From positions 1-52,532 of IMG/VR virus record IMGVR_UViG_3300032046_005782: a DNA stretch of 52,532 bases; one strand, given 5' to 3'. The stretch is from a virus. The notes beneath the pieces are model-generated. The model had not been told where the DNA came from, did no database searches, and was given only the letters and a program-made list of their open reading frames with translations. A program made the translations under genes and the position numbers. This document shows, piece by piece, positions 2,036 through 21,716 of the stretch; the first letter of the stretch is position 1, and the number at the start of each line of letters is the position of its first letter.

Positions 2036-2404
2036 TCAGACTTCCAAACTCACTTTTCCGGTCAAAATCGCCTCGACTGTTTGGTCCGTCACCAGGTACT
2101 CGAAGAGCGGTGACCGGGTGAATGTCTTGACCGCTTCGAGGCTCCACCTGCCGGCCTGGAGCGTGTGCAGGGCCTGGGCCAGGAGGGCGGCTACGAGCGC
2201 GCTGTTGGTCATAGACTCGGCCTGCCCAACCTGGCCGACCGCCTCGAGCAGGGCCTGCGGGAGGTCATAGGTGGCGCGTGTCCTTGCCTTGTCGCGCTTC
2301 CATTTCCGGCGATCCGCAGGCGCCATCGTCGCGGCTGCTTGGCGCTGATCCGCCTCGCCGAGGAGGGCTGCGACTGTGGGGTCGACGGCTTGTCGGCGGG
2401 TCAT
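2036..2404 (-). CDS. Ribbon-helix-helix partition/repressor protein (ParG/Omega-type)
   Basis: 122 residues. The middle reads RATYDLPQALLEAVGQVG then a helix MTNSALVAALLAQAL, the strand-helix-helix pattern of RHH (CopG/Arc) DNA-binding proteins. A basic stretch RKWKRDKARTR precedes the strand. Its ATG overlaps the parA stop as ATGA, so the two are translated together, and the palindrome array begins about 37 bases after its stop. In class Ib-type partition systems a small RHH protein binds the centromere, stimulates ParA and represses the operon; that is the inferred role. I see no ParB-type HTH domain. The family assignment rests on pattern only. Confidence 0.6.
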   Translation of the reverse strand: MTRRQAVDPTVAALLGEADQRQAAATMAPADRRKWKRDKARTRATYDLPQALLEAVGQVGQAESMTNSALVAALLAQALHTLQAGRWSLEAVKTFTRSPLFEYLVTDQTVEAILTGKVSLEV

Positions 2405-3186
2405 GGTATCACACTCCGAGCGCGATCCACAAACTCCCTGTACCCTCCCCTATGGCCATTGCCCAGGTTCATTCCCAGGACGCTGCGGGAGGTCGGGGCA
2501 TATTCCCAGATTGTCTGACCGTGGGCGGGCGCTTCGCGCAGATGCACGTCGGTCGGGATGGGGGCCAGTACGAGGGCCTGAAAGGTGGTTGCTAGAGCGC
2601 GCAGTTGCAGCAGGGTTTCGGTGGTCTGGCGGTCATAGAACGTCGGCAGGATGCCAAGGACGCGCGGGGCTGCATTCCCGGCCTGGCGGATTTGTACCAT
2701 GCTCCGGATGACTTCATTTACGCCATCGACTGCCAGGAAATCCAGGCGGGTCGGGATGACGATCCACTGGGCGGCTACGATGGCGGCTACGTGCAGGACA
2801 TCGAGCGAGGGCGCGCAGTCGATGACCGTGACGTCGAATACCTGCTCCAGTCCCTGGATGGTCGTCTGCAGGATGCGTTCCCGAAACGACATGCCGGTCA
2901 GGGTCCGCTTGGCCTGTTCCGTGGTCTTGTCGCTTGGCAACATCCAGAGGTTCGGGCGGGCCTGGACGATGGGCAGGGGGTCGTGGCCGTTGTAATTCGC
3001 GCGGTCGACGAGCGCGCGAATCCCAGGCGCCTTTTCGAGACCGAGGGCCACTGCCACATGCCCTTGCGGGTCCGTATCGACGATCAGGACGCGCAGGGAC
3101 TGCATGGCGAGGGCGTGGGCGAGGGTGACGGCTGTCGTGGTCTTGGCCGTTCCCCCTTTTTGATTCACGATTGCGAATGTGACCAT
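2401..3186 (-). CDS. parA: ParA-type partition ATPase
   Basis: 261 residues. Starts with MVTFAIVNQKGGTAKTTTAV, the deviant Walker A box (KGGTAKT) of the ParA/MinD family, followed by LIVDTDPQG (Walker A') and VTVIDCAPSLD (Walker B). The length suits a short ParA without an N-terminal HTH domain, the class normally paired with RHH centromere-binding proteins. The ribosome site AGGAGG lies a few bases before ATG. It is second in an operon after a Phd-like antitoxin and before the RHH gene. ParA ATPases position replicons on the nucleoid before division, so with no integrase in view this supports plasmid-like maintenance. Confidence 0.93.
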   Translation of the reverse strand: MVTFAIVNQKGGTAKTTTAVTLAHALAMQSLRVLIVDTDPQGHVAVALGLEKAPGIRALVDRANYNGHDPLPIVQARPNLWMLPSDKTTEQAKRTLTGMSFRERILQTTIQGLEQVFDVTVIDCAPSLDVLHVAAIVAAQWIVIPTRLDFLAVDGVNEVIRSMVQIRQAGNAAPRVLGILPTFYDRQTTETLLQLRALATTFQALVLAPIPTDVHLREAPAHGQTIWEYAPTSRSVLGMNLGNGHRGGYREFVDRARSVIP

Positions 3187-3587: not shown

Positions 3588-3616
3588 TAGACTTTTGTTG
3601 TGTTTTCTGCTATACT
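3588..3616 (+). promoter_or_regulatory. Promoter for the ParB-methyltransferase gene
   Basis: TAGACT (3588-3593) and TATACT (3611-3616) with a 17-base spacer. The -35 box is weak (4 of 6) and the -10 good (5 of 6). It diverges from the partition promoter at 3506-3534. Between it and the ATG at 3676 lie GGTTGAC...GTCAACC (3629-3656) and the recurring palindrome TTGACTTGTCAA, so the transcript start region is probably controlled. Confidence 0.55.
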
Positions 3617-3642
3617 GGTACTTGGGCAGGTTGACTATAGCA

Positions 3643-3654
3643 TTGACTTGTCAA
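3643..3654. promoter_or_regulatory. TTGACTTGTCAA palindrome, copy 1
   Basis: Inverted repeat TTGAC-TT-GTCAA, 21 bases before the ATG of the methyltransferase fusion. It is nested in a larger inverted repeat GGTTGAC (3629-3635)/GTCAACC (3650-3656). The same word recurs at 16953, 26311 and 32740, with a one-mismatch copy at 20359. Probably a dimeric regulator site. Confidence 0.55.
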
Positions 3655-3675
3655 CCCTACTGCCCAGGAGGGCCT

Positions 3676-5133
3676 ATGTCGAAAAAGGCGCGCGTTGTTG
3701 TTGCTCCTGCTCCGGGTGGGCCTGCTCCCCTGCGGAGTGGGGTAGTCCATCGGGACGACATTCCCGTGGTGGCCTGCAAACCCAATCCTCGAAACTACAA
3801 CAGGCATGGGCCTGACCAGATCGCGCGGTTGCGCTTTTCCCTGCGCCAGTTCGGCCAGGTCAAATCCATCGTCGTCCAGGACAGAGACGATGGTTCGTTT
3901 TTGCTTGTCGCAGGGGAGGGGGTCTGGCGGGCGTTGGTGGCCGAGGGACTCCAGGCGGTCAAAGCGGACGTCATTCCCGCCTCGTGGAGCGAGGCGGAGG
4001 TCTTGGCATATCTGGCGGCTGACAATGAAACCGCCAGGCTTTCCGATCCTGATCAGGAGCAGTTGGCCATGCTGCTGGTGGACGTCCACCAGCAGGCGGG
4101 CCATGACTTGGCTGCGCTGGCGGCTGGTACGGAGGAGCGCCTGGCCACTCTTTTCGCCGACACCCAGATCGAGGCATTACCTGGCGCTGACGTGGGTGAA
4201 GATCCAGGGCCACAGGGAGGCGATGCACCAGAGCGCCTGCTCGATGCCTGGCGGGTGGAGCCGGGGCAGTTATGGGTCATCCCATCGCGGGTGGTTCCTG
4301 GCGGGTGGCATCGCCTGCGCTGCGGAAACTCGCGCAACCGGTACGAGATCGCCAACCTGGTGACCGACATCCAGGTGCAGTGGGTCTGGACAGATCCACC
4401 TTATGGGGCGGACTATACCGGGCGAACGGCGGATGCGCTGGTGATCCAGGGCGACACTCCGGAGGAGGTCGAGGCGCTGCTGAGCGATGCCTTCGCGGCT
4501 ATAACGCCATTCCTGATGAAGGGCTGTCCCATTTACGTGTGTCATCCTGGCGGGCCACTAACCGAGATTTTCATGCGCTGTTTCCGTGGCGCTGGTTGGC
4601 TGCTCCACCAGGACTTGGTTTGGCTCAAAGATTCCTTCGTGATGGGCCACTCCGATTACCATTACCGCCATGAACCAGTCCTATATGGCGGGACTTCGGG
4701 GGCTGATCTTCCCTGGGTCGATGAGGAGGGGGAGCAGATGGGGCCTGAGTGGGACGTCGGTGCCGGCCTGTACGCATGGCAACACGAGGCGACTCTTTAT
4801 GGCTGGTCGCAGGGTCAGAGACGGCCATGGTATGGCGGGCGTAACAAGGGTTCCGTGATGGTCGTCGCTCGCCCGAAGCGGTCCGAGTTCTATCCTACCG
4901 CGAAACCGCCAGAACTGATTGCGGGGCATCTGCGGAATTCCTCGCTGCCGGGGTCGGTGGGCCTTGATCCATTTTTGGGTTATGGGTCGACGATGGTGGC
5001 GGGCGAGCGCCTGGGGCGGCTGGTGTTCGGGCAGGACATCGAACCTAAGTACTGCGCGGCTACCCTGGAGCGGATGGCCTTGATGGGTCTAAGACCACGG
5101 TTAGCTCAGAATGCAAACGGGGAGGTTGTATGA
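3676..5133 (+). CDS. ParB-like domain fused to a beta-class DNA methyltransferase
   Basis: 485 residues. Residues about 20-110 match the ParB/Srx fold (PNPRNYNRHGPDQIARLRFS, then VVQDRDDGSFLLVAGEG); the C-terminal half is an amino-DNA methyltransferase with catalytic DPPYG near residue 240 and the AdoMet loop LDPFLGYGSTM near residue 430. DPPY before the FxGxG-type loop is the beta-class order. ParB-methylase fusions are common in phages, where they are thought to modify phage DNA against restriction or act on defined sites. The ATG at 3676 has AGGAGGGCCT before it; upstream in-frame codons overlap the promoter and are not used. The 85-residue gene after it overlaps by four bases. No restriction nuclease lies nearby. 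Confidence 0.88.
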   Translation: MSKKARVVVAPAPGGPAPLRSGVVHRDDIPVVACKPNPRNYNRHGPDQIARLRFSLRQFGQVKSIVVQDRDDGSFLLVAGEGVWRALVAEGLQAVKADVIPASWSEAEVLAYLAADNETARLSDPDQEQLAMLLVDVHQQAGHDLAALAAGTEERLATLFADTQIEALPGADVGEDPGPQGGDAPERLLDAWRVEPGQLWVIPSRVVPGGWHRLRCGNSRNRYEIANLVTDIQVQWVWTDPPYGADYTGRTADALVIQGDTPEEVEALLSDAFAAITPFLMKGCPIYVCHPGGPLTEIFMRCFRGAGWLLHQDLVWLKDSFVMGHSDYHYRHEPVLYGGTSGADLPWVDEEGEQMGPEWDVGAGLYAWQHEATLYGWSQGQRRPWYGGRNKGSVMVVARPKRSEFYPTAKPPELIAGHLRNSSLPGSVGLDPFLGYGSTMVAGERLGRLVFGQDIEPKYCAATLERMALMGLRPRLAQNANGEVV

Positions 5134-12901: not shown

Positions 12902-13325
12902 ACCCTTTGGCGGCGTCTCGGAGTTGGTGGTATGTGGTTTCAGCATCTTCTTCCTCATCCCCCATGCCATACTTGTCCCACATGGCCAGGGCCTGGCGGG
13001 CGGCTGCCAGCAGGTCGGTGTCCAAAGTGTGTTTGGCGTCTTCGAGAACTGTGATGGCCGTGGCCAGGCAGACGCGGTCATGGTCGGTGATATCTGGTAG
13101 ACAGGCGATGCGCTTCGTCGTCCAATCGAGGGCCTGGATCACATCGAAGGGCGGCTGTTGCCTGGCTTCGTCCAGGCAGGGTCGGACTTTGGTGTTGAGG
13201 GCCTTCAGCAGTTCGTCGAGCGCATGGCGCTGGTCATCCACCTTCGGCTTTGGTGTTCCTGCGTTGGTCTTCCTACTCCCCAGGGTGGCCACTGCCAGAG
13301 CAAAGTGGGTGCTTGCACTCTCAAT
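12858..13325 (-). CDS. Helical unknown protein with unclear start
   Basis: About 155 residues. Central part ALDELLKALNTKVRPCLDEA, CLPDITDHDRVCLATAITVL and DLLAAARQALAMWDKYGMGD, all helical. The frame has no ATG near the previous stop. An ATT codon at 13323-13325 overlaps that stop as ATTGA, the geometry of a coupled start; GTG at 13290-13292 is the alternative. An upstream ATG at 13421 would overlap the neighbour by 100 bases and is unlikely. No family recognised; the 3' end overlaps the next gene. Confidence 0.55.
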   Translation of the reverse strand: MESASTHFALAVATLGSRKTNAGTPKPKVDDQRHALDELLKALNTKVRPCLDEARQQPPFDVIQALDWTTKRIACLPDITDHDRVCLATAITVLEDAKHTLDTDLLAAARQALAMWDKYGMGDEEEDAETTYHQLRDAAKGYAYWRSRHDRTCPF

Positions 13326-13665
13326 CTGCGTTTCCGCGTGGCTCCAGGACGATGGCCTGCATGGGACTGGCCAGAGCGAGGAGCGCCTTCCAGAACTGGT
13401 CCAGACCGCGCATGTTGCCAACGTTCAGTACCCAATCGCCCAGGTCGGTTTCCGAACCATCCATGGGGCATCCTGAGCGCGCGATGCTAATCGCCGTCAG
13501 GTGGACATAGACGTCGTTACCATCCACAGCCAGAATCTCGGCGCTGTACTGGCGGGCATGAGGATGGACGTCGTCAGGATTGGCGTTCACCCTGCGATGG
13601 AGGCTGACGGCCAACTTCTCTTGAAAGTATGGCGTCAGCAAACCTAAGACTTGGATTGGTTCCAT
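13321..13665 (-). CDS. Unknown small protein of the array
   Basis: 114 residues beginning MEPIQVLGLLTPYFQEKLAV. A beta-rich centre (YSAEILAVDGNDVYVHLTAI) and acidic DGSETDLGDWVLNVGNMRG follow. No family recognised. AGGAGGAACCGTT precedes the ATG, and upstream lie the conserved AACCCTGACA and a double hairpin (13701-13776). Like the other array genes it has its own ribosome site and is isolated from the gene before it by hairpins. Confidence 0.65.
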   Translation of the reverse strand: MEPIQVLGLLTPYFQEKLAVSLHRRVNANPDDVHPHARQYSAEILAVDGNDVYVHLTAISIARSGCPMDGSETDLGDWVLNVGNMRGLDQFWKALLALASPMQAIVLEPRGNAD

Positions 13666-13700
13666 AACGGTTCCTCCTGGTCATGATGTCAGGGTTGTGT

Positions 13701-13776
13701 TCCCCTGCGGTAGCGCCAGGGCCTGGCGGGCCTGGGGCTACCGCAGGGGAGATGGGTGTCCATCCCATCCCCCCTG
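13701..13776 (-). repeat. Array double hairpin 1
   Basis: Large stem TCCCCTGCGGTAGC (13701-13714) with GCTACCGCAGGGGA (13737-13750), then a small stem GATGG/CCATC (13751-13764). In the sense of transcription the small hairpin comes first, just after the stop of the gene ending at 13785. There is no U tract, so it is not a simple terminator. Confidence 0.8.
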
Positions 13777-13784
13777 CGCCATGG

Positions 13785-14219
13785 TTACAGGTTCCTGCGG
13801 TGAATCTCGGCCAGCAGTTCTTCGTCGGTAAAGGCGGCGAGGGGGTTGTGTTTGTTCCCCTGCACCATCTCCACCAGGTCGGCTACCTGGGCACGGATGC
13901 GTAATGCCCACCCACGTTCCTTGTCTGTGGTGGCGATGTCTGTGATGGCCAGGTCACCTTCCTGGTTCAGGAGGAGGACGTTGTAGGTGGTAGTATGGTA
14001 CTTCTGGCTACCGCGCGTAGTTGCGGTGACCAGAACCATGGGCGTGGAGACGTCCACTGTGCCGGTGGCGAGGAAGGGGCCAACAAAGGCATACCCTCCT
14101 GTTGCCAGTTCGTCGATACTGGTCACCTGCTTTACCCAAGACTTGAATCGTCCATCGTGGGGCGATCCTTCGTGGCCTGTGACCAGGGCCATCACTTCGG
14201 CGTACAAATCGCGAATCAC
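13785..14219 (-). CDS. Unknown protein of the array
   Basis: 144 residues, GTG start at 14219 after AGGAGGATTAGCTT. Reads MIRDLYAEVMALVTGHEG, then a beta-rich block (GGYAFVGPFLATGTVDVS, YNVLLLNQEGDLAITDIA) and a helical end FTDEELLAEIHRRNL. The pattern could fit a small nucleic-acid or protein-binding fold, but no family is recognisable. It sits between array hairpins 1 and 2. Confidence 0.65.
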   Translation of the reverse strand: MIRDLYAEVMALVTGHEGSPHDGRFKSWVKQVTSIDELATGGYAFVGPFLATGTVDVSTPMVLVTATTRGSQKYHTTTYNVLLLNQEGDLAITDIATTDKERGWALRIRAQVADLVEMVQGNKHNPLAAFTDEELLAEIHRRNL

Positions 14220-14254
14220 AAGCTAATCCTCCTGTCTAATGTGTCAGGGTGTGT

Positions 14255-14336
14255 TCCCCTGCGGTAGCGCCAGGGTCTGGCGGAGGGCCTGGCGTTACCG
14301 CGGGGGGGGATGGGTATCCATCCCATCCCCCCCTGG
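14255..14336 (-). repeat. Array double hairpin 2
   Basis: CCCCTGCGGTAGCGCCAGG on the left pairs with CCTGGCGTTACCGCGGGG on the right (one G-U/A-type change), followed by a small GGATGG-GTAT-CCATCC hairpin. Same design and flanks as hairpins 1, 3 and 5. Confidence 0.8.
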
Positions 14337-14342
14337 CCTGGG

Positions 14343-14597
14343 TCATCCCCACCTTGCGGCTTCCTGGTCGATGGCGTTCTGCAATCTCTCGAAGGCTGCT
14401 GCTGCTGCTTGCTTTGCGGCTTCGTAGGTTGCATAGTCGTCCATCAAGACCTGGTATGCTGCATCGACCGCATCCTTCGTGGCGGCGAGATCCGTGAAGA
14501 CGGGGTTACTACTCGATGCGATCCATCGCTTGTGGTGGGTGTCCAGTGTGGCGCAGGCGGCTTCGTATCGCGCTTTCAGCAGGGCTAATTCGTTCAT
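14343..14597 (-). CDS. Small helical protein
   Basis: 84 residues starting MNELALLKARYEAACATLDT; almost wholly helical with many alanines (AYQVLMDDYATYEAAKQAAA), likely a short coiled coil. AGGAGGAATGGG precedes the ATG at 14597. An upstream in-frame ATG at 14705 would overlap the neighbouring gene by 88 bases and has no ribosome site. No hairpin lies between this gene and the previous one. Function unknown. Confidence 0.65.
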   Translation of the reverse strand: MNELALLKARYEAACATLDTHHKRWIASSSNPVFTDLAATKDAVDAAYQVLMDDYATYEAAKQAAAAAFERLQNAIDQEAARWG

Positions 14598-14617
14598 CCC
14601 ATTCCTCCTGGCCTGGG

Positions 14618-15343
14618 TCAGTCGTTGGCCTTCTGACGCTCGACGTCGGTGAGGGTCTTGGCGATGAGGCGGGTGGCTGCTCCATCGCCCACCCACTCTT
14701 TCCACTGTCCATGAGGTGTTTCCCCTGGCAGGCGGTGGACTTCGACACGGTCGGTGTCCCAGTCTGTGATTTTGATGTAGAAGGAAGCGAGGCCCAGGGC
14801 CTGCGCGATGACGCTCCAGGTCCGCAGGTCGTCGGGCTTCACCAACCCCTGCTCCACCAGGGCGATGACGTTACGATTCTTCACACAGTCGAGGGCGCGG
14901 CTTACGTCCAGGTAGGTCTGGACGTCTTCCGGCGTGTACACATAGATGTACTGGGGCGGCTTGCCCCAATCCCGGAGCCACTGGGGGGCAGGCGCTGCTT
15001 CTTCAGGTATGTGCACACCGATGTGCTGAGGCGGCTGCTGCTGGTCAGGGTCTACCCTGCCACTGCCTTGTGCTTCTGCCACAATGATGTCTTCGAGTTC
15101 CTGCTTGTAGCGGGCGAGGCTGTCGACGGTATCGATGGCTCCGATGGTGTAGAGATCCCACATCACCATCGCCTCTTCATCATAGAGGTAGCGGATACCC
15201 TGCGGGGTCACGATCTGCAGTTCGTTGGGCCTGCCGTTGGCCGACAGCGAGACGATGTGTATCGAGGCGATCTGGCTCAGGTCATATACCCAATTGCCTA
15301 TGATCACCCGTTCCGTGGGCCTTGCGTTGTGTACGGTTTGCAT
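14618..15343 (-). CDS. Unknown 241-residue protein of the array
   Basis: ATG at 15343 after AGGAGGAACCGCC. N-terminal region beta-rich (VIIGNWVYDLSQIASIHIV, ELQIVTPQGIRYLY), then a helix (SLARYKQELEDIIVAEA), a Gln/Pro-rich linker, a repeated phrase IGVHIPEE / IYVYTPED, and a C-terminal domain ending near KWLEWV-type residues. It may bind another protein through the repeated phrase. No family recognised. It is preceded by hairpin 3 and followed closely by the small helical gene. Confidence 0.65.
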   Translation of the reverse strand: MQTVHNARPTERVIIGNWVYDLSQIASIHIVSLSANGRPNELQIVTPQGIRYLYDEEAMVMWDLYTIGAIDTVDSLARYKQELEDIIVAEAQGSGRVDPDQQQPPQHIGVHIPEEAAPAPQWLRDWGKPPQYIYVYTPEDVQTYLDVSRALDCVKNRNVIALVEQGLVKPDDLRTWSVIAQALGLASFYIKITDWDTDRVEVHRLPGETPHGQWKEWVGDGAATRLIAKTLTDVERQKAND

Positions 15344-15377
15344 GGCGGTTCCTCCTGGTTCTGATGTCAGGGTTAAC

Positions 15378-15455
15378 GTTCCCCTGCGGTAGCGCCAGGG
15401 CCTGGCGGGCCTGGCGTTACCGCAGGGGGAGAGTGTGCAGGGCCACTCTCCCCCT
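15378..15455 (-). repeat. Array double hairpin 3
   Basis: Large stem CCCCTGCGGTAGCGCCAGG with CCTGGCGTTACCGCAGGGG, then small stem GGGGGAGAGTG with CACTCTCCCCC. The small stem differs entirely in sequence from those of hairpins 1 and 2 but keeps perfect pairing. Confidence 0.8.
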
Positions 15456-15461
15456 GGCGTG

Positions 15462-15956
15462 TCAGGTGCCACAGTTGCAGGGTGGCTTGGTCACCAGCAT
15501 AAAGTGGTTTGCTGACCACTGCGCGTACTGGGCGGCGTCATCCATCAAGTTGGCGGTCACGAGCGCTTCTGCATTCCGTTCGTCGAGCGCATCCACGGTG
15601 GCCAGCACATTCCCTTCGCCGTCGATGGCGTAGTACGTGAGCGGGTCGGTGGCGTTGATGGGCCATTGCGACTTGGGCATGCGCAGGAGATCGTCGGCGG
15701 AGCAATCTTCCTCGATCCAGGACGGGCGGTGTTCGCGGGGCAACCATCCCTTGATGAAGGCGATGTCACCAGGTTCCATTCCCCCCTGCTCCGCGAGGGC
15801 GCGATCGCTGCGAATGTCAGACCGCTTGGGGTCATCCGGGATGGCGTTCCCCTTCCGGATGCCACACAGCATGACCGGCTGGTCGTGTCGGTAGGATGGG
15901 TACTTGGCGGTGTAGACGTACCAAGCGCCAATGATGCGGGTGTCACCTTGTTCCAT
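15462..15956 (-). CDS. Unknown 164-residue protein, first gene behind early promoter E2
   Basis: ATG at 15956 with AGGAGGAACAAGCA. Reads MEQGDTRIIGAWYVYTAKYP, VMLCGIRKGNAIPDD, later YYAIDGEGNVLATVDALDER and ends in KPPCNCGT. Mixed alpha/beta; the terminal CNCG may bind metal. No family recognised. Being first after a conserved early promoter it should be among the most strongly made products of the array. Confidence 0.65.
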   Translation of the reverse strand: MEQGDTRIIGAWYVYTAKYPSYRHDQPVMLCGIRKGNAIPDDPKRSDIRSDRALAEQGGMEPGDIAFIKGWLPREHRPSWIEEDCSADDLLRMPKSQWPINATDPLTYYAIDGEGNVLATVDALDERNAEALVTANLMDDAAQYAQWSANHFMLVTKPPCNCGT

Positions 15957-15989
15957 TGCTTGTTCCTCCTGGCGTGATAGGTTCTGGTA

Positions 15990-16022
15990 CTTATACGAGT
16001 TAGCGTGGGAAAACTTCAGTTG
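15990..16022 (-). promoter_or_regulatory. Early promoter element E2
   Basis: Minus strand CAACTGAAGTTTTCCCACG, then AACTCG and TATAAG. It lies between array hairpin 4 and the gene starting at 15956, so it can fire the downstream half of the array on its own. Shares the core with E1, E3 and E4. Confidence 0.7.
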
Positions 16023-16095
16023 TCCCTGCTGTAGCGCCAGGGCCAGGGCGGGCCTGGCGTTACAGCAGGGAGGATGGGTGGCCATCCTTCCCTGG
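16022..16095 (-). repeat. Array double hairpin 4
   Basis: CCCTGCTGTAGCGCCAGG with CCTGGCGTTACAGCAGGG. Compared with copies 1-3 the G-C pair of GCGG/CCGC has become T-A on both arms (GCTG/CAGC), a compensatory change. A small GGATGG...CCATCC hairpin follows. Confidence 0.8.
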
Positions 16096-16110
16096 CGAGC
16101 GGGTCGCAGT

Positions 16111-16371
16111 CTAGTCATTGCCAAACGGGGGACACGGTCGGTCAACGTCATTGATGGGTGTGTGTCCAGCCAGGGCGAGATCCAGGTCACCTGGCTCAGA
16201 CTCTGCCAGTTCGGTGGTGAGCACGAGGACGTGGCGTACTGCAAAGATGGGGTTGCCTTGCGCGTCCAAAAACTCGCATTCCACGGTGTTGGGCGTTTCG
16301 ATCTTTGGCGATCTGATCATGTTCCTGAAGACTGCTACGATTGCGACTGGTTGTCCACCATACGTGATCAT
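16111..16371 (-). CDS. Small unknown protein of the array
   Basis: 86 residues, MITYGGQPVAIVAVFRNM at the start and a proline/acid-rich end (TPINDVDRPCPPFGND). The middle is beta-rich (TVECEFLDAQGNPIFAVRHV). AGGAGGATTACAGC precedes the ATG. No family recognised. It lies upstream of promoter E2 and so belongs to the part of the array read from farther upstream. Confidence 0.6.
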   Translation of the reverse strand: MITYGGQPVAIVAVFRNMIRSPKIETPNTVECEFLDAQGNPIFAVRHVLVLTTELAESEPGDLDLALAGHTPINDVDRPCPPFGND

Positions 16372-16407
16372 GCTGTAATCCTCCTGTCTGATGTGTCAGG
16401 GTTGTGT

Positions 16408-16482
16408 TCCCCTGCGGTAGCGCCAGGGCCAAGGCGGGCCTGGCGTTACCGCAGAGGGGATGGGTATCCATCCCATCCCCCC
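16408..16482 (-). repeat. Array double hairpin 5
   Basis: CCCCTGCGGTAGCGCCAGG with CCTGGCGTTACCGCAGAGGGG, plus GGATGG-GTAT-CCATCC. Nearly the same sequence as copies 2 and 3, with a one- or two-base bulge. Confidence 0.8.
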
Positions 16483-16494
16483 TGCCCCTGGGCA

Positions 16495-16929
16495 TCAGTA
16501 CTGCCTGAGCAAGATCAGAATCTTACCCCTGCGCAGCAGGTCCAGGCTCTCCATGTCGGGTCGCAGGCGACTCCAACGTTCCTCGAACTGTCGGCGGGCA
16601 TCGGCGAGGTTGAGGGCGCTAACTTCCCCCAGGTACGTTCCTGCCGGGGCATAGGCTGCGAACTGGTCCAGTTGGTACGCTTCGAATCCGGGCTCCAGTT
16701 CGAGCGTGGGGTCATAGGGCGCTGGCCAGGACTGGTCGGGATTGTCGGAGCGGTACACCAGGGCGCTGTTGAAGTGGCCACAGGGCAGGGCAATGGGGAC
16801 GGTGGTACGGGCGATCCGCTTGTCGTGGTAGTGGAACATAACTTCGACCGTGATCTTGTCGGCCTTCCCGCAGTTGTAGCATCTGACCACGGTTCCTGCG
16901 GGGCGGGTGAAGACTGTAATCGTGTTCAT
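16495..16929 (-). CDS. Unknown protein with a possible metal site
   Basis: 144 residues, MNTITVFTRPAGTVVRCYNC at the start. CYNCG with later PCGHF could form a Cys/His zinc site. The C-terminal half is helical (ALNLADARRQFEERWSRLRP). AGGAGGATTATGCA precedes the ATG, and a TTGACTTGTCAA palindrome lies 24 bases upstream. No family recognised. Confidence 0.65.
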   Translation of the reverse strand: MNTITVFTRPAGTVVRCYNCGKADKITVEVMFHYHDKRIARTTVPIALPCGHFNSALVYRSDNPDQSWPAPYDPTLELEPGFEAYQLDQFAAYAPAGTYLGEVSALNLADARRQFEERWSRLRPDMESLDLLRRGKILILLRQY

Positions 16930-16952
16930 TGCATAATCCTCCTGCTATCGTC

Positions 16953-16964
16953 TTGACTTGTCAA
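16953..16964. promoter_or_regulatory. TTGACTTGTCAA palindrome, copy 2
   Basis: Lies 24 bases upstream of the ATG at 16929 on the minus strand, between that gene and array hairpin 6. It may punctuate control inside the array. Confidence 0.55.
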
Positions 16965-16985
16965 TCGAGTAAGGTGTTGGTGTTA

Positions 16986-17055
16986 CCCAACCAAAAACCC
17001 AGGCTGCCGGGGGCCTGGGTTTTTGGTTGGGCAGGAGGGCGTCCAACCCTCCTGC
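16986..17055 (-). repeat. Array double hairpin 6
   Basis: CCCAACCAAAAACCCAGGC pairs over 19 bases with GCCTGGGTTTTTGGTTGGG; a second stem GCAGGAGG/CCTCCTGC follows. The primary sequence is unlike the other copies, yet the two-stem layout and position are the same. The first stem is strong enough to slow polymerase. Confidence 0.8.
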
Positions 17056-17075
17056 CGTTGCCTGTGGCCACTTCC

Positions 17076-17795
17076 TCATTCCTGTTCCGGGTCGTCGTAG
17101 GACTTGAGGACGGCGAGCGCCTGGTCCATGTCCATCTGCACGGGCGCTTTGATGTGCAGTCGCTCGATGGCGGGCTGGCATGCCCAGTCGGAGGGGCCTT
17201 CGCGGGTGATCCGGTGGACTGGCTTGCCCAGGGTCACGAAAACGTCCAGAACGCTGTCATACCCCTGTTGTGCCAATTCGACCACGAGCATGCGCTGCGC
17301 TTCTCCATCGTTGCGGGCTAAGACGCTCAGAGTGGGGTTGCTGGTTCCCATCTTGACGTGGTCGTCGGTGTAGGCGCTGTACTCGTGGTCCTTGACTTCC
17401 GTGAGCGGGACGTGCTGGCTCAGGCGGGCATCCCACACGGTTTCCGTAAAGCGGGCCTTCTTCTTCGCCAAGCGCAGCAGGACGTCGGCGACTTCCGGGC
17501 GTTTCCAGGATTCTTTGGAATTGAGGGCTGCGCGGGCGGCTTGCGTGGCCAGTTCCAGGCTTTCGAGGTCGCGCGCGGTCACTTCGATGTCGGCTGCGTA
17601 CCATTCTGACCAGTGCTTGTCCCAGGTGCCAGCCTTCTGCTCCTGGCCTTCCTCGATCCTGTTGGCCTGCCAGACGAGGGCAACCACGGGGTTGCCATAC
17701 TCGGTGGTGCGAATCTCCAGGCGCAGGTGCGTGTACTTGTCCCATGCGCCTGGGTCTTCCACCAATACCGTGTAGAGGTAAGTTTGCTTGTTCAC
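17076..17795 (-). CDS. Unknown 239-residue protein of the array
   Basis: GTG start at 17795 after AGGAGGATTGAC. N-terminal beta region (YLYTVLVEDPGAWDKYTHLR, NPVVALVWQANRI), a long helical centre rich in Lys/Ala (LATQAARAALNSKESWKRPE, VLLRLAKKKARFTE) and a C-terminal domain ending in an acidic tail. No family recognised. It is flanked by array hairpins 6 and 7. Confidence 0.65.
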   Translation of the reverse strand: MNKQTYLYTVLVEDPGAWDKYTHLRLEIRTTEYGNPVVALVWQANRIEEGQEQKAGTWDKHWSEWYAADIEVTARDLESLELATQAARAALNSKESWKRPEVADVLLRLAKKKARFTETVWDARLSQHVPLTEVKDHEYSAYTDDHVKMGTSNPTLSVLARNDGEAQRMLVVELAQQGYDSVLDVFVTLGKPVHRITREGPSDWACQPAIERLHIKAPVQMDMDQALAVLKSYDDPEQE

Positions 17796-17829
17796 GTCAA
17801 TCCTCCTGGGTTAGTGTCAGGATGGCGTT

Positions 17830-17945
17830 CCCCTGCTGTATCACCAGGGCCTGGGGTAGTCGCTTGCCAGGGCAACCCCTGGGGCAACCTTGCAGGTTCT
17901 GGTGATACAGCAGGGGGGGATGGTTGCTGGCGCTGTCCATCCCCC
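17830..17945 (-). repeat. Array double hairpin 7
   Basis: CCCCTGCTGTATCACCAG (17830-17847) pairs perfectly with CTGGTGATACAGCAGGGG (17899-17916) around a 51-base apical region; a GGGGGATGG/CCATCCCCC stem follows. The GTATCACC/GGTGATAC segment replaces GTAGCGCC/GGCGTTAC of other copies, so both arms changed together. Confidence 0.8.
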
Positions 17946-17958
17946 ACTGCCTGGCTGT

Positions 17959-18447
17959 CTATCGCTCCCATCGGGTCAAGGCACTCATCTGCTTCCATGA
18001 GAGCGGGCGGCTGTACTTGCGCGCGTCGGGCGGGGTTTCGATGTATGAAACTACCTGGTCGCGCAGGCTCCGGCGGAAGTCGGAGCGGAAGTTCTGAACC
18101 GCGAGCAGTTTGGTCAGGGCGACTCGCTCCGTGGGGTTGTCTACGTAGAGCGCCAGGTATACTTGCCAATCCTGGGGCATGTCCTTCGCTCCCTTGATGG
18201 CCCATACGGTTTCCCACTGGCTGGCGTGCTGCGCATATTCATCACCCGTCATCCAGTCGGGGATTTCTACGGGCCTGACTTCCCACTTGTTCACCTGTAC
18301 GGGTCGGAAATCGTCGGGCGAGAAGATGCAAGGCTTCTGTTCCGTCAGGTCTGCGGGGTCGGCGTCACCCTTCCACTCGCGTACAGGCGACTTCGGCGTG
18401 TACGTGAGTTCGCCATAGTGGCGGCAGAGAATCAGTACGGTCTTCAT
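17959..18447 (-). CDS. Unknown 162-residue protein of the array
   Basis: ATG at 18447 after AGGAGGATTCGACA. Starts MKTVLILCRHYGELTYTPKS; then ADLTEQKPCIFSPDDFRPVQ and a tryptophan-rich helical end (YAQHASQWETVWAIKGAKDM, PLSWKQMSALTRWER). No family recognised. The next upstream gene ends 282 bases away, a gap filled by array hairpin 8. Confidence 0.65.
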   Translation of the reverse strand: MKTVLILCRHYGELTYTPKSPVREWKGDADPADLTEQKPCIFSPDDFRPVQVNKWEVRPVEIPDWMTGDEYAQHASQWETVWAIKGAKDMPQDWQVYLALYVDNPTERVALTKLLAVQNFRSDFRRSLRDQVVSYIETPPDARKYSRPLSWKQMSALTRWER

Positions 18448-18728
18448 TGTCGAATCCTCCTGGGTATAGTATGCGCCTAGCCAGGCTAATCGGCCACTCG
18501 GCCTGGCCAGGCTACCACACGAACCATTGGACTGCTTGCCCGTCACCCGTCCATCCAGAGCGTGGTGGCTCTCGCGCGTCAATTCGCGCTTCCCATGCCC
18601 AGGTGACTTATAGGGCAGTTTACCGTGGCCTATTCTGCCCCAGGGCTTCCCTACCTTCAGCCCAGGCCAGGCCCTGGCCTGGGCTGAAGGTAAGGGGAGC
18701 GTCACTCTCCCCTTACCCTTCTTCTTGT
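18448..18728 (-). repeat. Gene-free gap holding array hairpin 8
   Basis: The strongest palindrome of the array is here: ACCTTCAGCCCAGGCCAGG (18653-18671) and CCTGGCCTGGGCTGAAGGT (18673-18691), 19 perfect pairs with a one-base loop. A TAAGGGGAG/CTCCCCTTA stem follows (18691-18716). A weaker inverted repeat around TAGCCAGGC / GCCTGGC lies at 18477-18514. I see no convincing reading frame between. Confidence 0.75.
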
Positions 18729-19148
18729 CTAGTGGTCCAGTTGCAGGGCCAGGCGGGCCTTGCGAACTGCGCGGGTCAAGCGTGGCAGGTATCCTACCTG
18801 CAGGCGGTTCTGCGCAGGAAAGTCGTACTGTAGCGCGCTGATCACTTCCATTCCGAAATCTACGGCTGCGCTTTCCAGGGCGGCGAGCGCCTTGACCGCT
18901 TCGCTCTTGTCGCTCAGGGTGCCGCTGTCTGCGCCATCGGTTTCGTCAAGGAGGGGTTCGTTGCGCAGGGCCAGGCGGGCCTTGCGGACTGCCGTGATCA
19001 GGTTGGGCAGGTATCCTACCTGCAGGCGGGCCTGTGTGGTCGGGTCAAACTTCGTAACTTCGATCACTTCCAGACCAAAGTCTACAGTGGTACTCTCCAA
19101 CTCCTTGAGCGCGTTGACCACTTCACTGTGGCTATAGACTGCGTCCAT
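18729..19148 (-). CDS. Protein of two tandem 60-residue repeats
   Basis: 139 residues. Repeat 1 contains EVVNALKELESTTVDFGLEV and RLQVGYLPNLITAVRKARLA; repeat 2 contains EAVKALAALESAAVDFGMEV and RLQVGYLPRLTRAVRKARLA. Each is a pair of helices with a short link. The copies are also near-identical at the DNA level in places (for example GTATCCTACCTGCAGGCGG twice), so the duplication is fairly recent. AGGAGGAACAAACG precedes the ATG. Basic ends (RKARLAL) suggest nucleic-acid or protein contact. No family recognised. Confidence 0.65.
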   Translation of the reverse strand: MDAVYSHSEVVNALKELESTTVDFGLEVIEVTKFDPTTQARLQVGYLPNLITAVRKARLALRNEPLLDETDGADSGTLSDKSEAVKALAALESAAVDFGMEVISALQYDFPAQNRLQVGYLPRLTRAVRKARLALQLDH

Positions 19149-19178
19149 CGTTTGTTCCTCCTGGGTAGTGTCAGGGTT

Positions 19179-19245
19179 GCCCCTGCTGTAACCGCAATCC
19201 CTGAGTGGGGTTGCGGTTACAGCAGGGGAGGATTGTCGAATCCTC
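19179..19245 (-). repeat. Array double hairpin 9
   Basis: CCCCTGCTGTAACCGCAA pairs over 18 bases with TTGCGGTTACAGCAGGGG; then GGAGGATT/AATCCTCC. The GTAACCGC/GCGGTTAC segment again differs from other copies on both arms. Confidence 0.85.
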
Positions 19246-19258
19246 CACCTGGCTGCTG

Positions 19259-19669
19259 CTAGTACCCAAACGCGCGGGCCCAGCGCGTGACTCCGTACCA
19301 CTGCGCTTTCGGTACGGTGTTGATGATCTTGTCGGCGATGGCGTCGAGCTTCTTCGCCAGGGCCAGGCGTTCGTTGTAATCGCCATTCAATCCGAAATCC
19401 GCCGTCATGGGCATGCAATGGTGGCGGTCGTCGGGTGAAACGCTGAAGGCTACCATCCGCCAAATGTAGGCGGTCTCTCCGCCTTCGGTGACCACCTTGC
19501 GTCCACCAAACTCGTCACGCTCGTCCGTTTCGGTGTATACAATCGTCGGCTTGCTTGCGCGCAAGCATCCGGTGTGGTGGTTTACAATCCCCTGGGCGAG
19601 TGCGTGTTCGTCGGCGGTCAAGTTGGCCTGGCTGAGGTCAATCGTCGGGTACGTCCGCCTTGCGGTCAT
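19259..19669 (-). CDS. First gene of the minus-strand array, unknown
   Basis: 136 residues. Starts MTARRTYPTIDLSQANLTAD, then EHALAQGIVNHHTGCLRASK, YIWRMVAFSVSPDDRHHCMP and a helical end (LALAKKLDAIADKIINTVPK). Three HH/HHC-type histidine groups might bind metal. AGGAGGAATGATACA precedes the ATG. It follows a roughly 450-base structured leader read from a promoter near 20150. No family recognised. Confidence 0.65.
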   Translation of the reverse strand: MTARRTYPTIDLSQANLTADEHALAQGIVNHHTGCLRASKPTIVYTETDERDEFGGRKVVTEGGETAYIWRMVAFSVSPDDRHHCMPMTADFGLNGDYNERLALAKKLDAIADKIINTVPKAQWYGVTRWARAFGY

Positions 19670-19689
19670 TGTATCATTCCTCCTGGGGT

Positions 19690-20143
19690 TGAATTTATGC
19701 GGTAGTACCGCACCAGCAGTCTACCAGGTTTCTGGTCTGCTGCTGGTGGGGTATTACCCCTGCCGTCTTACCCTCTACTGCTTTTCTCCGCCAGGTCTTT
19801 TTCAGGTTTCCCTGTGTGGTCCAGGAGTTTCCCACCAACCTTGCGTTTCCCAGTCCAACCCTACCTTCCCAGGTTTTGGTTCGGCCAGTCTGCCGGATTC
19901 TCACCGTCGGGTCTTGGCTTTGAGCTTCGCTTTCAGGTTCCCCCTTGCTTAGTTACTCCCTGGGTTCGGGTTTTCCCGTTCTTCCCGTCCCTGCGCTTTG
20001 CGCCTGCCGTGGAGTTTGTCGCTAGAGCGTCCCTTTACTTGCTCTACTCGGCTAGTTTGTTCTGGTGCTACTCTGGCCAGGGCTTCCCCATCTGGTGGCC
20101 AGGCTCCCTGGGGGGCGGCTTCCCCCTTCGTGCTCCCTTACTG
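19690..20143 (-). ncRNA. Candidate structured RNA or long leader of the array
   Basis: About 450 bases without a believable protein frame. The minus-strand transcript is purine-rich with many short stems capped by A-rich loops: CUGGCCA/UGGCCAG (20073-20102), UAGAGC/GCUCUA (20023-20046), CGGG-AAAA-CCCG, GCGC-AAA-GCGC, AACC-AAA-ACCU-GGGA-AGGU-AG-GGUU, CAGG-GAAA-CCUG (19803-19814), GGGGU/ACCCC (19748-19760), CACCAGCAG/CUGCUGGUG (19711-19748) and GCGGU/ACCGC (19699-19711). GNRA loops and unpaired A runs are typical of large folded RNAs. It could be a free RNA or the 5' leader of the gene at 19669; no U tract marks its end. No known family recognised. Confidence 0.55.
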
Positions 20144-20558: not shown

Positions 20559-20587
20559 TTGACATTGGCGCGCTTTTGCTGTATAAT
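20559..20587 (+). promoter_or_regulatory. Consensus late promoter
   Basis: TTGACA (20559-20564), a 17-base spacer and TATAAT (20582-20587): a perfect vegetative promoter, the only one of this quality in the window. It points at the structured RNA and then the lysis and head genes. Just upstream lie the GTAAGACAC/GTGTCTTAC palindrome and repeated AAGTAAGAC words, possible operator sites. Confidence 0.92.
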
Positions 20588-20594
20588 CTTCATC

Positions 20595-21012
20595 AGCAGT
20601 AGCGCAATCCTCCTGGGTCTGGTGAGCGTGCTGCGAGTGCTAAAGCCGGAGGAGGGTGCGGGCCCAGACTCCGGCGCGCAATCATCTGGTTCGTTTTCTT
20701 TTTGGGTTCGGGGCCCTGTGGGCAGGGGCGGATGGACTGGCGCTTCTCCTGGGCAGTTCGTCACCCTTGCCCACAGGGCAGTTACTGCGCTATATTTTAC
20801 AATGCAGGTCCACCTGTGCGGGCCTGCGAGGTGATGGAAGGGCAGGAGCCAGGTACGCTGTCGACGTCGTCGTGAGGGCCACTGCAGGGTTCGGACTCCT
20901 GCCCTTCCATGATCAGAACATCCCCCACCCGGGCCCCAGGGCCTACGGATGGGGAATTGGCCCTGGAACACAGACACACGGGCTACCGGCGAACGGTTGC
21001 CCGTGTTTTGTT
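20595..21012 (+). ncRNA. Candidate structured RNA with its own promoter and terminator
   Basis: About 415 bases between a perfect promoter and a strong terminator, with no credible protein. Perfect inverted repeats cover most of it: UAGCGCA/UGCGCUA (20600-20606 with 20786-20792), GCCGGAG/CUCCGGC (20645-20675), GCCCUGUGGGCA/UGCCCACAGGGC (20713-20779), GCAGGUCC/GGGCCUGC with one wobble pair (20804-20827), AUGGAAGGGCAGGAG/CUCCUGCCCUUCCAU (20834-20910), CCAGGGCC/GGCCCUGG (20936-20966), then the terminator stem. It is either an independent RNA or a leader controlling read-through into the late genes. It shows no tmRNA, RNase P or 6S signature that I recognise. Confidence 0.65.
20976..21012 (+). 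terminator. Strong intrinsic terminator before the lysis genes
   Basis: ACACGGGC (20976-20983) pairs with GCCCGTGT (20999-21006); inside, ACCG pairs with CGGT around GCGAA. TTTTGTTTG follows. It stops 15 bases before the amidase start, so late genes need read-through or antitermination. Confidence 0.85.
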
Positions 21013-21026
21013 TGTGTGGAGGATGC

Positions 21027-21716
21027 GTGGCAGATCCAGAGTATGACCAGGTCCAGGTTCAGGCGCTGGTCGTGGAATGTGACCAGGCAATTACTACGCT
21101 TCAGCAGACATCGGCCAATCTCCGCAGGCGATTGGACTGCCTGGTGGCCAGTCAAACCCCACTTCCGTGGACGCGCGATCTACGGGCAACCATGCCCAAA
21201 AACCCGGCTTGTCCAGGAATCCTCAAGGGCGGCTGGTGGCGCAGGCAGGTTGCGGCCATCAGGACGGTATGTTTCCACCACACTCTTTCCCAATCCCCTG
21301 TAGACTTCGCCAAGTGGTACATCACCAAGGAGGGCGGTCGGCCTTCGACGTGTTATACCCTTTGGATTACGGAGACCGGCGAGACCATCCTATGTGGTGA
21401 CCTGGAGGATGGGGTCTGGCACAATTTCCAGGGTCACGAGAATCTTGACTTGTCAGTTGGACTGGCGGGCAATCGGGCGGTCCTTGCTCCTTCGACGCTG
21501 CAGTTGAATGCGGCTGCACGGTTGGCGGCTTGGGCCATCAAATCTCCCCTGCTCCCCCTGATCACATCCCCCAAACAAATACTCGGTCACCAGGACTATC
21601 CCAAGTGTGGCGCTGGTGGCATCTATGCGACTGATTGCCCTGGGTGGCTGATGCCCCAAAGTGGAAAGTGGAAGGCTGCGCTATATGCGCGGTTGGATGC
21701 ACTCTTGTTAGTATAG
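21027..21716 (+). CDS. N-acetylmuramoyl-L-alanine amidase (endolysin)
   Basis: 229 residues. The Amidase_2/PGRP fold is shown by VCFHHTLSQSP (first zinc histidine and partner), CYTLWITETGETI, a glycine/asparagine-rich NLDLSVGLAG and ILGHQDYPK ... TDCPG with the second histidine and the cysteine ligand. The enzyme cuts the amide bond between muramic acid and the stem peptide. About 50 N-terminal residues are helical and may bind the wall or keep the enzyme in check. GTG at 21027 is chosen because GGAGGATGC precedes it; upstream codons lie in the terminator. A holin-like gene follows, so this is the lysis cassette. Confidence 0.88.
   Translation: MADPEYDQVQVQALVVECDQAITTLQQTSANLRRRLDCLVASQTPLPWTRDLRATMPKNPACPGILKGGWWRRQVAAIRTVCFHHTLSQSPVDFAKWYITKEGGRPSTCYTLWITETGETILCGDLEDGVWHNFQGHENLDLSVGLAGNRAVLAPSTLQLNAAARLAAWAIKSPLLPLITSPKQILGHQDYPKCGAGGIYATDCPGWLMPQSGKWKAALYARLDALLLV

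What the first reader, a model, noticed from the sequence alone, without database searches (positions are those of the whole stretch)
20559..21026. Orphan structured RNA with perfect promoter and terminator in front of the late operon
A textbook promoter, about 410 bases of nested perfect inverted repeats (15, 12, 8, 8, 7 and 7 bp) and an intrinsic terminator occur without a protein gene, 15 bases before the endolysin start. Either this is a free phage RNA, or it is a leader whose terminator is overcome when late genes are needed, as with lambda pR'-tR' or the HK022 put RNAs. No known RNA family fits by eye.
Basis: partly seen in the sequence, partly recalled or inferred. Interest (0 to 1): 0.78.

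Follow-up and report, generated by a model that had tools for sequence, protein, structure and literature searches.

The report
Phage late-operon leader with antisense box
The region encodes the long, folded start of a phage's late-gene message, ending in a built-in stop signal just before the lysis gene, and near its front it carries an exact mirror copy of the ribosome-binding sites of the phage's own divergent (probably early) genes, so the released RNA may silence early genes when late genes switch on.

Summary
In detail: the only perfect sigma-70 promoter in the window (20559-20587), about 415 nt of strongly folding RNA (z = -7.3) and an intrinsic terminator 15 bases before the endolysin GTG. 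It is not an orphan. Four related IMG/VR phages and an Anaerolineae MAG contig carry the same late leader. The terminator-proximal ~90 nt (P1/P2 hairpin, GCCCWGGA motif, ACACGGGC terminator) is conserved with compensatory changes, occurs twice in tandem in one phage, and precedes late genes in all. More distant relatives keep only promoter, short leader and terminator. This supports a lambda pR'-tR'-like conditional terminator; no antiterminator was identified.

New: at 20605-20618 the leader holds (CAAT)CCTCCTGGGT, the exact antisense of an extended Shine-Dalgarno, ACCCAGGAGG(A/T), at the starts of minus-strand, presumably early genes (11/11 early genes match over >=9 nt, against 2/20 late genes). 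All box-bearing relatives show the pairing; SDs of this kind are nearly absent from phages without the box. Best explanation: the terminated leader doubles as a multi-target antisense RNA that shuts off early translation. Subcluster K1 mycobacteriophages show a partial parallel. No Rfam family matches. Expression, readthrough and silencing remain untested.

The parts
20559..20587 (+). sigma-70-type late promoter TTGACA-N17-TATAAT (perfect)
   Evidence: 12/12; conserved with 0-1 mismatches in L004, L005, L006/7, L017 at the same place before late genes
20595..21010 (+). leader RNA (inferred +1 near 20595, end at the U tract), about 415 nt, highly structured
   Evidence: fold z -7.34; conserved in L004 (71% over 581 nt plus a 32-nt block at 97%)
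20605..20618 (+). antisense box CAATCCTCCTGGGT; core CCTCCTGGGT (20609-20618) conserved at the same distance from the promoter in 4 phages
   Evidence: exact complement of minus-strand SDs 14, 13 and 11 nt long
20645..20675 (+). conserved hairpin GCCGGAG..CTCCGGC (32-nt block 97% identical in L004)
20713..20779 (+). clade-variable long hairpin (16-nt arms)
   Evidence: replaced by other hairpins in L004/L006, absent from L005, L017 and L053
20834..20910 (+). long hairpin with 15-nt perfect arms, counterpart in L004
20920..20956 (+). P1/P2 element: stem with an internal mismatch enclosing a 4-bp hairpin
   Evidence: same topology folded independently in 5 of 6 copies; compensatory changes; CM hit 20917-21010
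20959..20969 (+). conserved motif GGCCCTGGAAC (GCCCWGGA), can pair with GGGC of the terminator 5' arm (P3) or with the antisense box
   Evidence: pairing is inference
20976..21015 (+). intrinsic terminator ACACGGGC..GCCCGTGT + TTTTGTTTG
21027..21716 (+). first late gene: endolysin (SD GGAGG 21018-21022, GTG start); holin, head protease and major capsid gene follow
19156..19166 (-). predicted antisense target: extended SD ACCCAGGAGGA of minus-strand gene starting at 19148
   Evidence: 11-nt complement
18453..18465 (-). predicted antisense target: extended SD ACCCAGGAGGATT of gene starting at 18447
   Evidence: 13-nt complement
17798..17811 (-). predicted antisense target: extended SD ACCCAGGAGGATTG of gene starting at 17795
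   Evidence: 14-nt complement
19678..19687 (-). predicted antisense target: SD CCCAGGAGGA of gene starting at 19669
   Evidence: 10-nt complement

Best explanation
The region is the leader of the phage's late operon. A strong, probably constitutive promoter (20559-20587) starts a transcript near 20595. By default it ends at the intrinsic terminator just before the lysis gene and releases a ~415-nt structured RNA. When late genes are needed an antitermination event, probably acting through the conserved P1/P2 - GCCCWGGA - terminator element, lets RNA polymerase read through into endolysin, holin, capsid and tail genes. In this phage clade the leader carries near its 5' end an antisense copy of the extended Shine-Dalgarno of the divergently transcribed early genes, so the released RNA (and the start of the late mRNA) would base-pair with many early ribosome-binding sites and shut off their translation. 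Shown by sequence: anatomy, conservation, covariation, complementarity, and early-versus-late specificity. Inferred: expression, readthrough, identity of the antiterminator, pairing in vivo, and that the minus-strand genes are early.
For: Anatomy and fold. Same leader and position before late genes in L004, L005, L006/L007 and L053, and as two tandem element+terminator units before the head protease in L017. P1/P2 topology recovered independently in five copies, with both-side compensatory changes. Distant relatives (L011, L015, L016, L022, L023, L025, L051, L072) keep promoter, 30-100 nt leader, terminator, first late gene. Antisense box: CCTCCTGGGT occurs 4 times in the window against 0.27 expected, three of them being minus-strand RBSs; genes with >=9 nt exact complement to the leader: window 11/11 early and 2/20 late, L006 11/12 and 1/9, L004 6/9 and 1/13, L005 3/7 and 1/11; combined 31, never reached in 1000 sets of dinucleotide-shuffled leaders. 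The leader-wide 8-mer antisense profile peaks at the box. CCCAGGAGG SDs: 31 of 133 SD-bearing genes in box-bearing phages against 1 of 185 in 15 phages or prophages without the box. Own leader-early set pairing is the best of 24 permutations by duplex energy; L006 SD flank CCACACCC matches its leader GGGTGTGG. A Chloroflexota 16S tail ends CCTCCTTTTATGG, so CCC is not explained by rRNA pairing. Partial parallel in K1 mycobacteriophages.
Against: No transcript data. 'Early' rests on gene orientation and lack of structural homology; ten of the minus-strand proteins have no Pfam match. Only four or five phages of one clade carry the box, so the co-occurrence is one evolutionary event. In L004 the leader reads GGAGGG where most of its early SDs read GGAGGA, so matches stop at 9 nt. 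In L006 the leader also carries a sense copy ACCCAGGAGC that could occupy the box. The box is partly paired in predicted folds (opening cost 4-14 kcal/mol) and can pair in cis with GGCCCWGGA, an alternative reason for its conservation. Permutation support is modest (1 in 24). No Q- or NusG-like protein was seen.
Confidence: 0.5

Rival explanations
1. Late-operon leader with a conditional terminator only; the 5' box is a cis structural element (pairing with GGCCCWGGA near the terminator, or with internal GGAGG stretches), and its match to early SDs is a by-product of SD-like sequence.
For: MFE folds of L004, L006 and L005 pair the box with GGCCCWGGA; L006 shows a two-sided change (UCCUGGGUC:GGCCCAGGA to UCCUGGGUG:UGCCCAGGA; sequences).
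Against: Cis pairing does not need the left half of the box (CAAT/ACC + CCTCC). In the window and L005 the cis helix has a U.U mismatch while the SD match is perfect. CCCAGGAGG SDs appear almost only in box-bearing phages.
Confidence: 0.3
2. DNA-level operator or stoperator: ACCCAGGAGG is a protein-binding DNA site at early gene starts, and the leader copy is one more site overlapping the late promoter's initial transcribed region.
For: Repeats with extra upstream CCCTGACA/CCCTGCA/CCCTACA elements resemble regulatory DNA repeats; L5-type stoperators exist (own knowledge; contrast drawn in PMC3203893).
Against: Sites sit exactly at the SD of genes inside the operon, in sense orientation; no reason for the SD register or for the single antisense copy within the first 30 nt of the leader.
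Confidence: 0.08
3. Free-standing phage RNA with its own function (for example on host RNA polymerase or ribosomes), unrelated to late gene readthrough.
For: Strong fold, own promoter and terminator; clade-specific large hairpins.
Against: Always directly upstream of late genes; distant relatives keep only promoter and terminator, which suits control of readthrough rather than a conserved RNA body.
Confidence: 0.07
4. The 5' box sequesters the endolysin's own SD (UCCUCC pairs with GGAGGA at 21018-21023) to delay lysis on read-through mRNA.
For: A 7-nt perfect inverted repeat 20607-20613/21018-21024 and MFE pairing in the full-length fold.
Against: In L004 only about 4 bp fit (sequence), and any SD pairs with CCTCC; the CCC/GGGT half is unused.
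Confidence: 0.05

Closest known systems
Phage lambda pR'-tR' late leader (6S RNA) controlled by Q
   Same: Strong promoter, immediate intrinsic terminator, lysis and virion genes downstream; a short terminated RNA is expected by default.
   Different: No Q gene or qut element identified; leader longer and different in sequence; a conserved RNA element sits next to the terminator.
HK022 put RNA (protein-free antitermination)
   Same: A hairpin (P1/P2) about 1 nt from a possible second hairpin (P3) directly upstream of a terminator in a nascent phage RNA.
   Different: P3 is only a possible pairing that competes with the terminator; no sequence relation tested; put lies upstream of early operons (own knowledge).
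StxS (terminated late transcript of Stx phages acting as sRNA)
   Same: An RNA made by early termination of a phage late transcript that base-pairs in trans (summarised in PMC12197685).
   Different: StxS acts on rpoS and stx1AB; here the predicted targets are many of the phage's own early genes through one shared extended SD.
Start-Associated Sequences of cluster K mycobacteriophages
   Same: A repeated extended SD at many non-structural gene starts, with one opposite-orientation copy located where late transcription starts in K1 phages (PMC3203893, PMC11373665), displayed there in a hairpin loop.
   Different: Unrelated sequence and host; other cluster K subclusters keep the same SAS but have a diverged antisense loop or none found.
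P22 sar, P1/P7 c4 and lambda OOP/aQ antisense RNAs
   Same: Phage antisense RNAs that repress phage genes (aQ, c4 and the P22 antisense switch are covered; the rest own knowledge).
   Different: Those are single-target or cis-encoded; here one short box matches 3-11 gene starts.

Membership tests
lambda-type pR'-tR' late leader | Strong promoter followed closely by an intrinsic terminator before lysis/virion genes | tested here: met
   conserved in relatives
lambda-type pR'-tR' late leader | A Q-type antiterminator encoded by the phage | tested here: inconclusive
   no Q, NusG or antitermination family among the window proteins scanned; divergent proteins would be missed
lambda-type pR'-tR' late leader | Readthrough late in infection | not testable with these tools
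   needs RNA-seq
HK022 put | Two stem-loops separated by a single unpaired nucleotide, at the start of the transcript | tested here: inconclusive
   P1/P2 well supported; P3 is 4-6 pairs by inspection; position is terminator-proximal, not promoter-proximal, in the window
Rfam families (any) | Score at or above gathering threshold | tested here: not met
Trans-acting antisense sRNA of a terminated late leader (StxS-like) | Defined terminated transcript with a seed complementary to target RBSs | tested here: inconclusive
   terminator and seed present, targets specific; transcript and regulation not testable here
Cluster K Start-Associated Sequence (SAS) system | 13-bp GGGATAGGAGCCC repeat at starts of non-structural genes | tested here: not met
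   the motif here is ACCCAGGAGG(A/T); only the arrangement is alike
Cluster K Start-Associated Sequence (SAS) system | Extended SD repeated at non-structural gene starts beyond 16S complementarity, plus one opposite-orientation copy | tested here: met
   the opposite copy lies in the late leader

The most novel reading that the evidence does not exclude
A general RNA-only early-to-late switch in phages: many early genes share one extended Shine-Dalgarno, and the late leader carries its antisense, so that starting the late promoter silences all early genes at the translation step at once. It arose independently in these Chloroflexota-associated phages and in cluster K1 mycobacteriophages, where it would give a function to the Start-Associated Sequences. 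In the present clade the same box can pair in cis with the terminator-proximal motif, so early mRNAs could in turn influence late readthrough.
Probability: 0.22. Interest if true: 0.85.

Novelty: new variant of a known kind. Interest (0 to 1): 0.62.

Why it matters
Phages usually silence early genes with proteins or promoter switching. A late leader that doubles as a multi-target antisense RNA against the phage's own early ribosome-binding sites would be a compact alternative. It also offers a directly testable explanation for the cluster K mycobacteriophage Start-Associated Sequences, whose role was still called unknown in 2024 (PMC11373665). The conserved P1/P2-terminator element would be a new candidate antitermination RNA in phages associated with Chloroflexota.

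Tried and rejected
Rfam at gathering and permissive thresholds: only chance hits, mostly microRNA models. Nucleotide relatives among named phages: none. Terminator-motif pattern scan of IMG/VR: besides the known relatives only two chance hits, inside an endolysin-like coding region. Promoter+box pattern scan: besides the known relatives only six contigs without the element; the best CM score among them is 16 bits. Endolysin and further MCP searches gave no new box-bearing phage. Idea that the box is an RBS of a minus-strand gene: rejected, because spacing to the next start codon is 15, 4 and 14 nt and there is no proper start in L006 (sequence inspection). Idea that CCC in the early SDs pairs with 16S rRNA: rejected on one Chloroflexota 16S tail. 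SAS-antisense covariation across cluster K: rejected, because SAS is invariant while the leader loop varies (CCUCCUAUCC in K1, CCCUCCUUCCC in DarthP, UUCUCCCUUCC in Krueger, UUAUUCCCUUCC in TClif, none found in Keshu or Chris). Microbacterium phage AnnaSerena (SAS GGGAAAGGACCCC): no antisense copy with fewer than two mismatches. TM4 was not in the collection.

Full report
What is there. The window is a 52.5-kb IMG/VR virus record without tRNA genes. At 20559-20587 lies the only perfect TTGACA-N17-TATAAT promoter of the window. It is followed by about 415 nt without a convincing protein gene and by an intrinsic terminator (20976-21015) whose tail ends about 15 nt before the GTG of an endolysin (21027; PHROG E 1.6e-6). 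Holin, head protease and major head protein genes follow. The transcript folds far better than shuffles (-228.3 against -186.1 +/- 5.8 kcal/mol, z -7.34). Rfam has nothing.

Relatives. The phage has few relatives. The major head protein finds four IMG/VR contigs at 76-79% (L004, L005, L006, L007), L017 at about 61%, and an Anaerolineae (Chloroflexota) MAG contig at 67% (L053); L006 and L007 carry nearly the same leader. In L004-L007 a near-perfect promoter lies at the same place, followed by CCTCCTGGGT about 25 nt after the -10 hexamer, a variable set of hairpins, and a conserved end just before the lysin gene. L017 has no lysin there; its promoter is followed by two tandem copies of the conserved end, each with its own terminator, and then by the head protease. 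L053 has one copy with an extra hairpin inserted. So the conserved unit is the terminator-proximal ~90 nt, and the large hairpins of the window are clade-specific additions.

The terminator-proximal element. Folding six copies separately gives one topology in five of them: a stem P1 with an internal mismatch or bulge, enclosing a 4-bp hairpin P2 with a 2-nt offset, then GCCCWGGA and the terminator stem ACACGGGC... P1 covaries: its third pair is C-G, A-U, U-A, A-U, G-C and C-G in window, L004, L006, L005, L017 and L053 (hand alignment). RNAalifold on six copies finds nine pairs with two-sided changes. The 5' arm of the terminator is almost invariant although its 3' arm is not (L006), which suggests a second role. 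GCCC of GGCCCWGGA can pair with GGGC of the terminator arm (P3; my inspection of the sequences), giving a hairpin exclusive with the terminator about one nucleotide from P1. This resembles put or antiterminator geometry, but P3 is inference. A covariance model finds all copies used to build it and, weakly (25 bits, E 0.011), a tandem pair of related terminators behind a promoter in L016.

A general late-leader layout. Among terminase and capsid relatives (L011, L015, L016, L022, L023, L025, L051, L072) a strong promoter is followed within 30-100 nt by an intrinsic terminator and then the first late gene. This is the logic of lambda pR'-tR' and is the best reason to call the window's feature a late leader with a conditional terminator. 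No Q-like or NusG-like gene was recognised.

The antisense box. CCTCCTGGGT occurs four times in the window, all on the + strand, against 0.27 expected. The other three are Shine-Dalgarno regions, read on the minus strand, of minus-strand genes upstream of the leader: ACCCAGGAGGATTG (gene at 17795), ACCCAGGAGGATT (18447), ACCCAGGAGGA (19148). The leader is complementary to these over 14, 13 and 11 nt. Across the clade the minus-strand genes use an extended SD, (A)CCCAGGAGG(A/T), and the leader carries its antisense. Genes with at least 9 nt of exact complement to the leader: window 11/11 early and 2/20 late; L006 11/12 and 1/9; L004 6/9 and 1/13; L005 3/7 and 1/11. The combined early count of 31 was never reached in 1000 sets of dinucleotide-shuffled leaders. 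Along the whole leader the complementarity peaks at the box, with smaller secondary matches. SDs with CCCAGGAGG: 7/58, 10/38, 11/21 and 3/16 genes in box-bearing phages, but 1 of 185 genes in 15 phages or prophages without the box. In L006 the SD flank is CCACACCCAGGAGGT and its leader reads ACCTCCTGGGTGTGG; by duplex energy the true leader-target pairing ranks first of 24 permutations. A Chloroflexota 16S tail (CCTCCTTTTATGG) cannot pair with the CCC. The box is not an RBS itself, since no start codon follows at a usable distance in all four phages.

Weak points. 'Early' is inferred from divergent orientation and absence of structural homology; the proteins have no Pfam hits. L004's box matches most of its own early SDs over only 9 nt. 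L006's leader also has a sense copy of ACCCAGGAG. The box is partly paired in predicted folds (opening cost 4-14 kcal/mol) and can pair in cis with GGCCCWGGA, so a purely structural reason for its conservation is the main rival. All box-bearing phages are one clade. The statistics were chosen after the match had been seen.

A parallel elsewhere. Cluster K mycobacteriophages have a 13-bp extended SD (SAS, GGGATAGGAGCCC) at 11-19 non-structural gene starts, of unknown function, and four K1 phages have a single copy in the opposite orientation not associated with a gene (PMC3203893). I located that copy: Adephagia 58682-58694 and Anaya 59870-59882, in the 0.4-kb gap before gene 93 (Adephagia) or 97 (Anaya). 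This is the gap where the Adephagia RNA-seq paper places the start of late transcription ('between genes 92 and 93'; PMC11373665). There GCCTCCTATCCC falls in the apical loop of a hairpin. SgtBeansprout has it too. In other cluster K phages the same hairpin has other pyrimidine-rich loops or none was found, while SAS stays the same, so the parallel is suggestive, not proof. A Microbacterium phage with SAS-like repeats has no such copy.

Verdict. A real, conserved, ordinary-in-plan late leader with a conditional terminator (about 0.8 by itself), plus a statistically strong antisense relation to the phage's own early ribosome-binding sites whose function is inferred (about 0.5 for the combined model). 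The mechanism proposed: default termination gives a trans-acting antisense RNA, and the same promoter, once antiterminated, drives the late genes.

Noticed in passing
L089 8682-8694 (Adephagia 58682-58694) and L090 9870-9882 (Anaya 59870-59882): The single opposite-orientation SAS of subcluster K1 mycobacteriophages falls in a hairpin loop inside the non-coding gap where Adephagia late transcription is reported to start; a possible clue to SAS function.
   Followed up: partly
L017 19457-19707: Two tandem copies of the P1/P2-GCCCWGGA-terminator element directly behind one promoter, before the head protease.
   Followed up: partly
L016 9686-9840: Promoter followed by two tandem terminators, each preceded by CGTGAAACGNTGANACACGGC, where CGTG/CACG could form an antiterminator hairpin; a similar single unit lies in L025 12265-12347.
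   Followed up: partly
window minus strand 13300-19700; L004, L005 and L006 minus-strand genes: Besides the extended SD, many early genes share an upstream CCCTGACA (window), CCCTGCA (L004, L005) or CCCTACA (L006) about 8-12 nt before it; the L006 leader contains GTGTAGGG and the L004 and window leaders CTGCAGGG, possible second antisense sites.
   Followed up: partly
L006 6480-6489: The L006 leader also holds a sense copy ACCCAGGAGC of the early SD, which could occupy the antisense box in cis.
   Followed up: no
window 3595-5133: One gene combines a ParB-like domain with a DNA methyltransferase domain (PHROG 723 and 498).
   Followed up: no
window 2401-3186 (minus strand): A ParA-like gene (PHROG 164) next to the ParB-like gene suggests partition functions, possibly a plasmid-like prophage state.
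   Followed up: no
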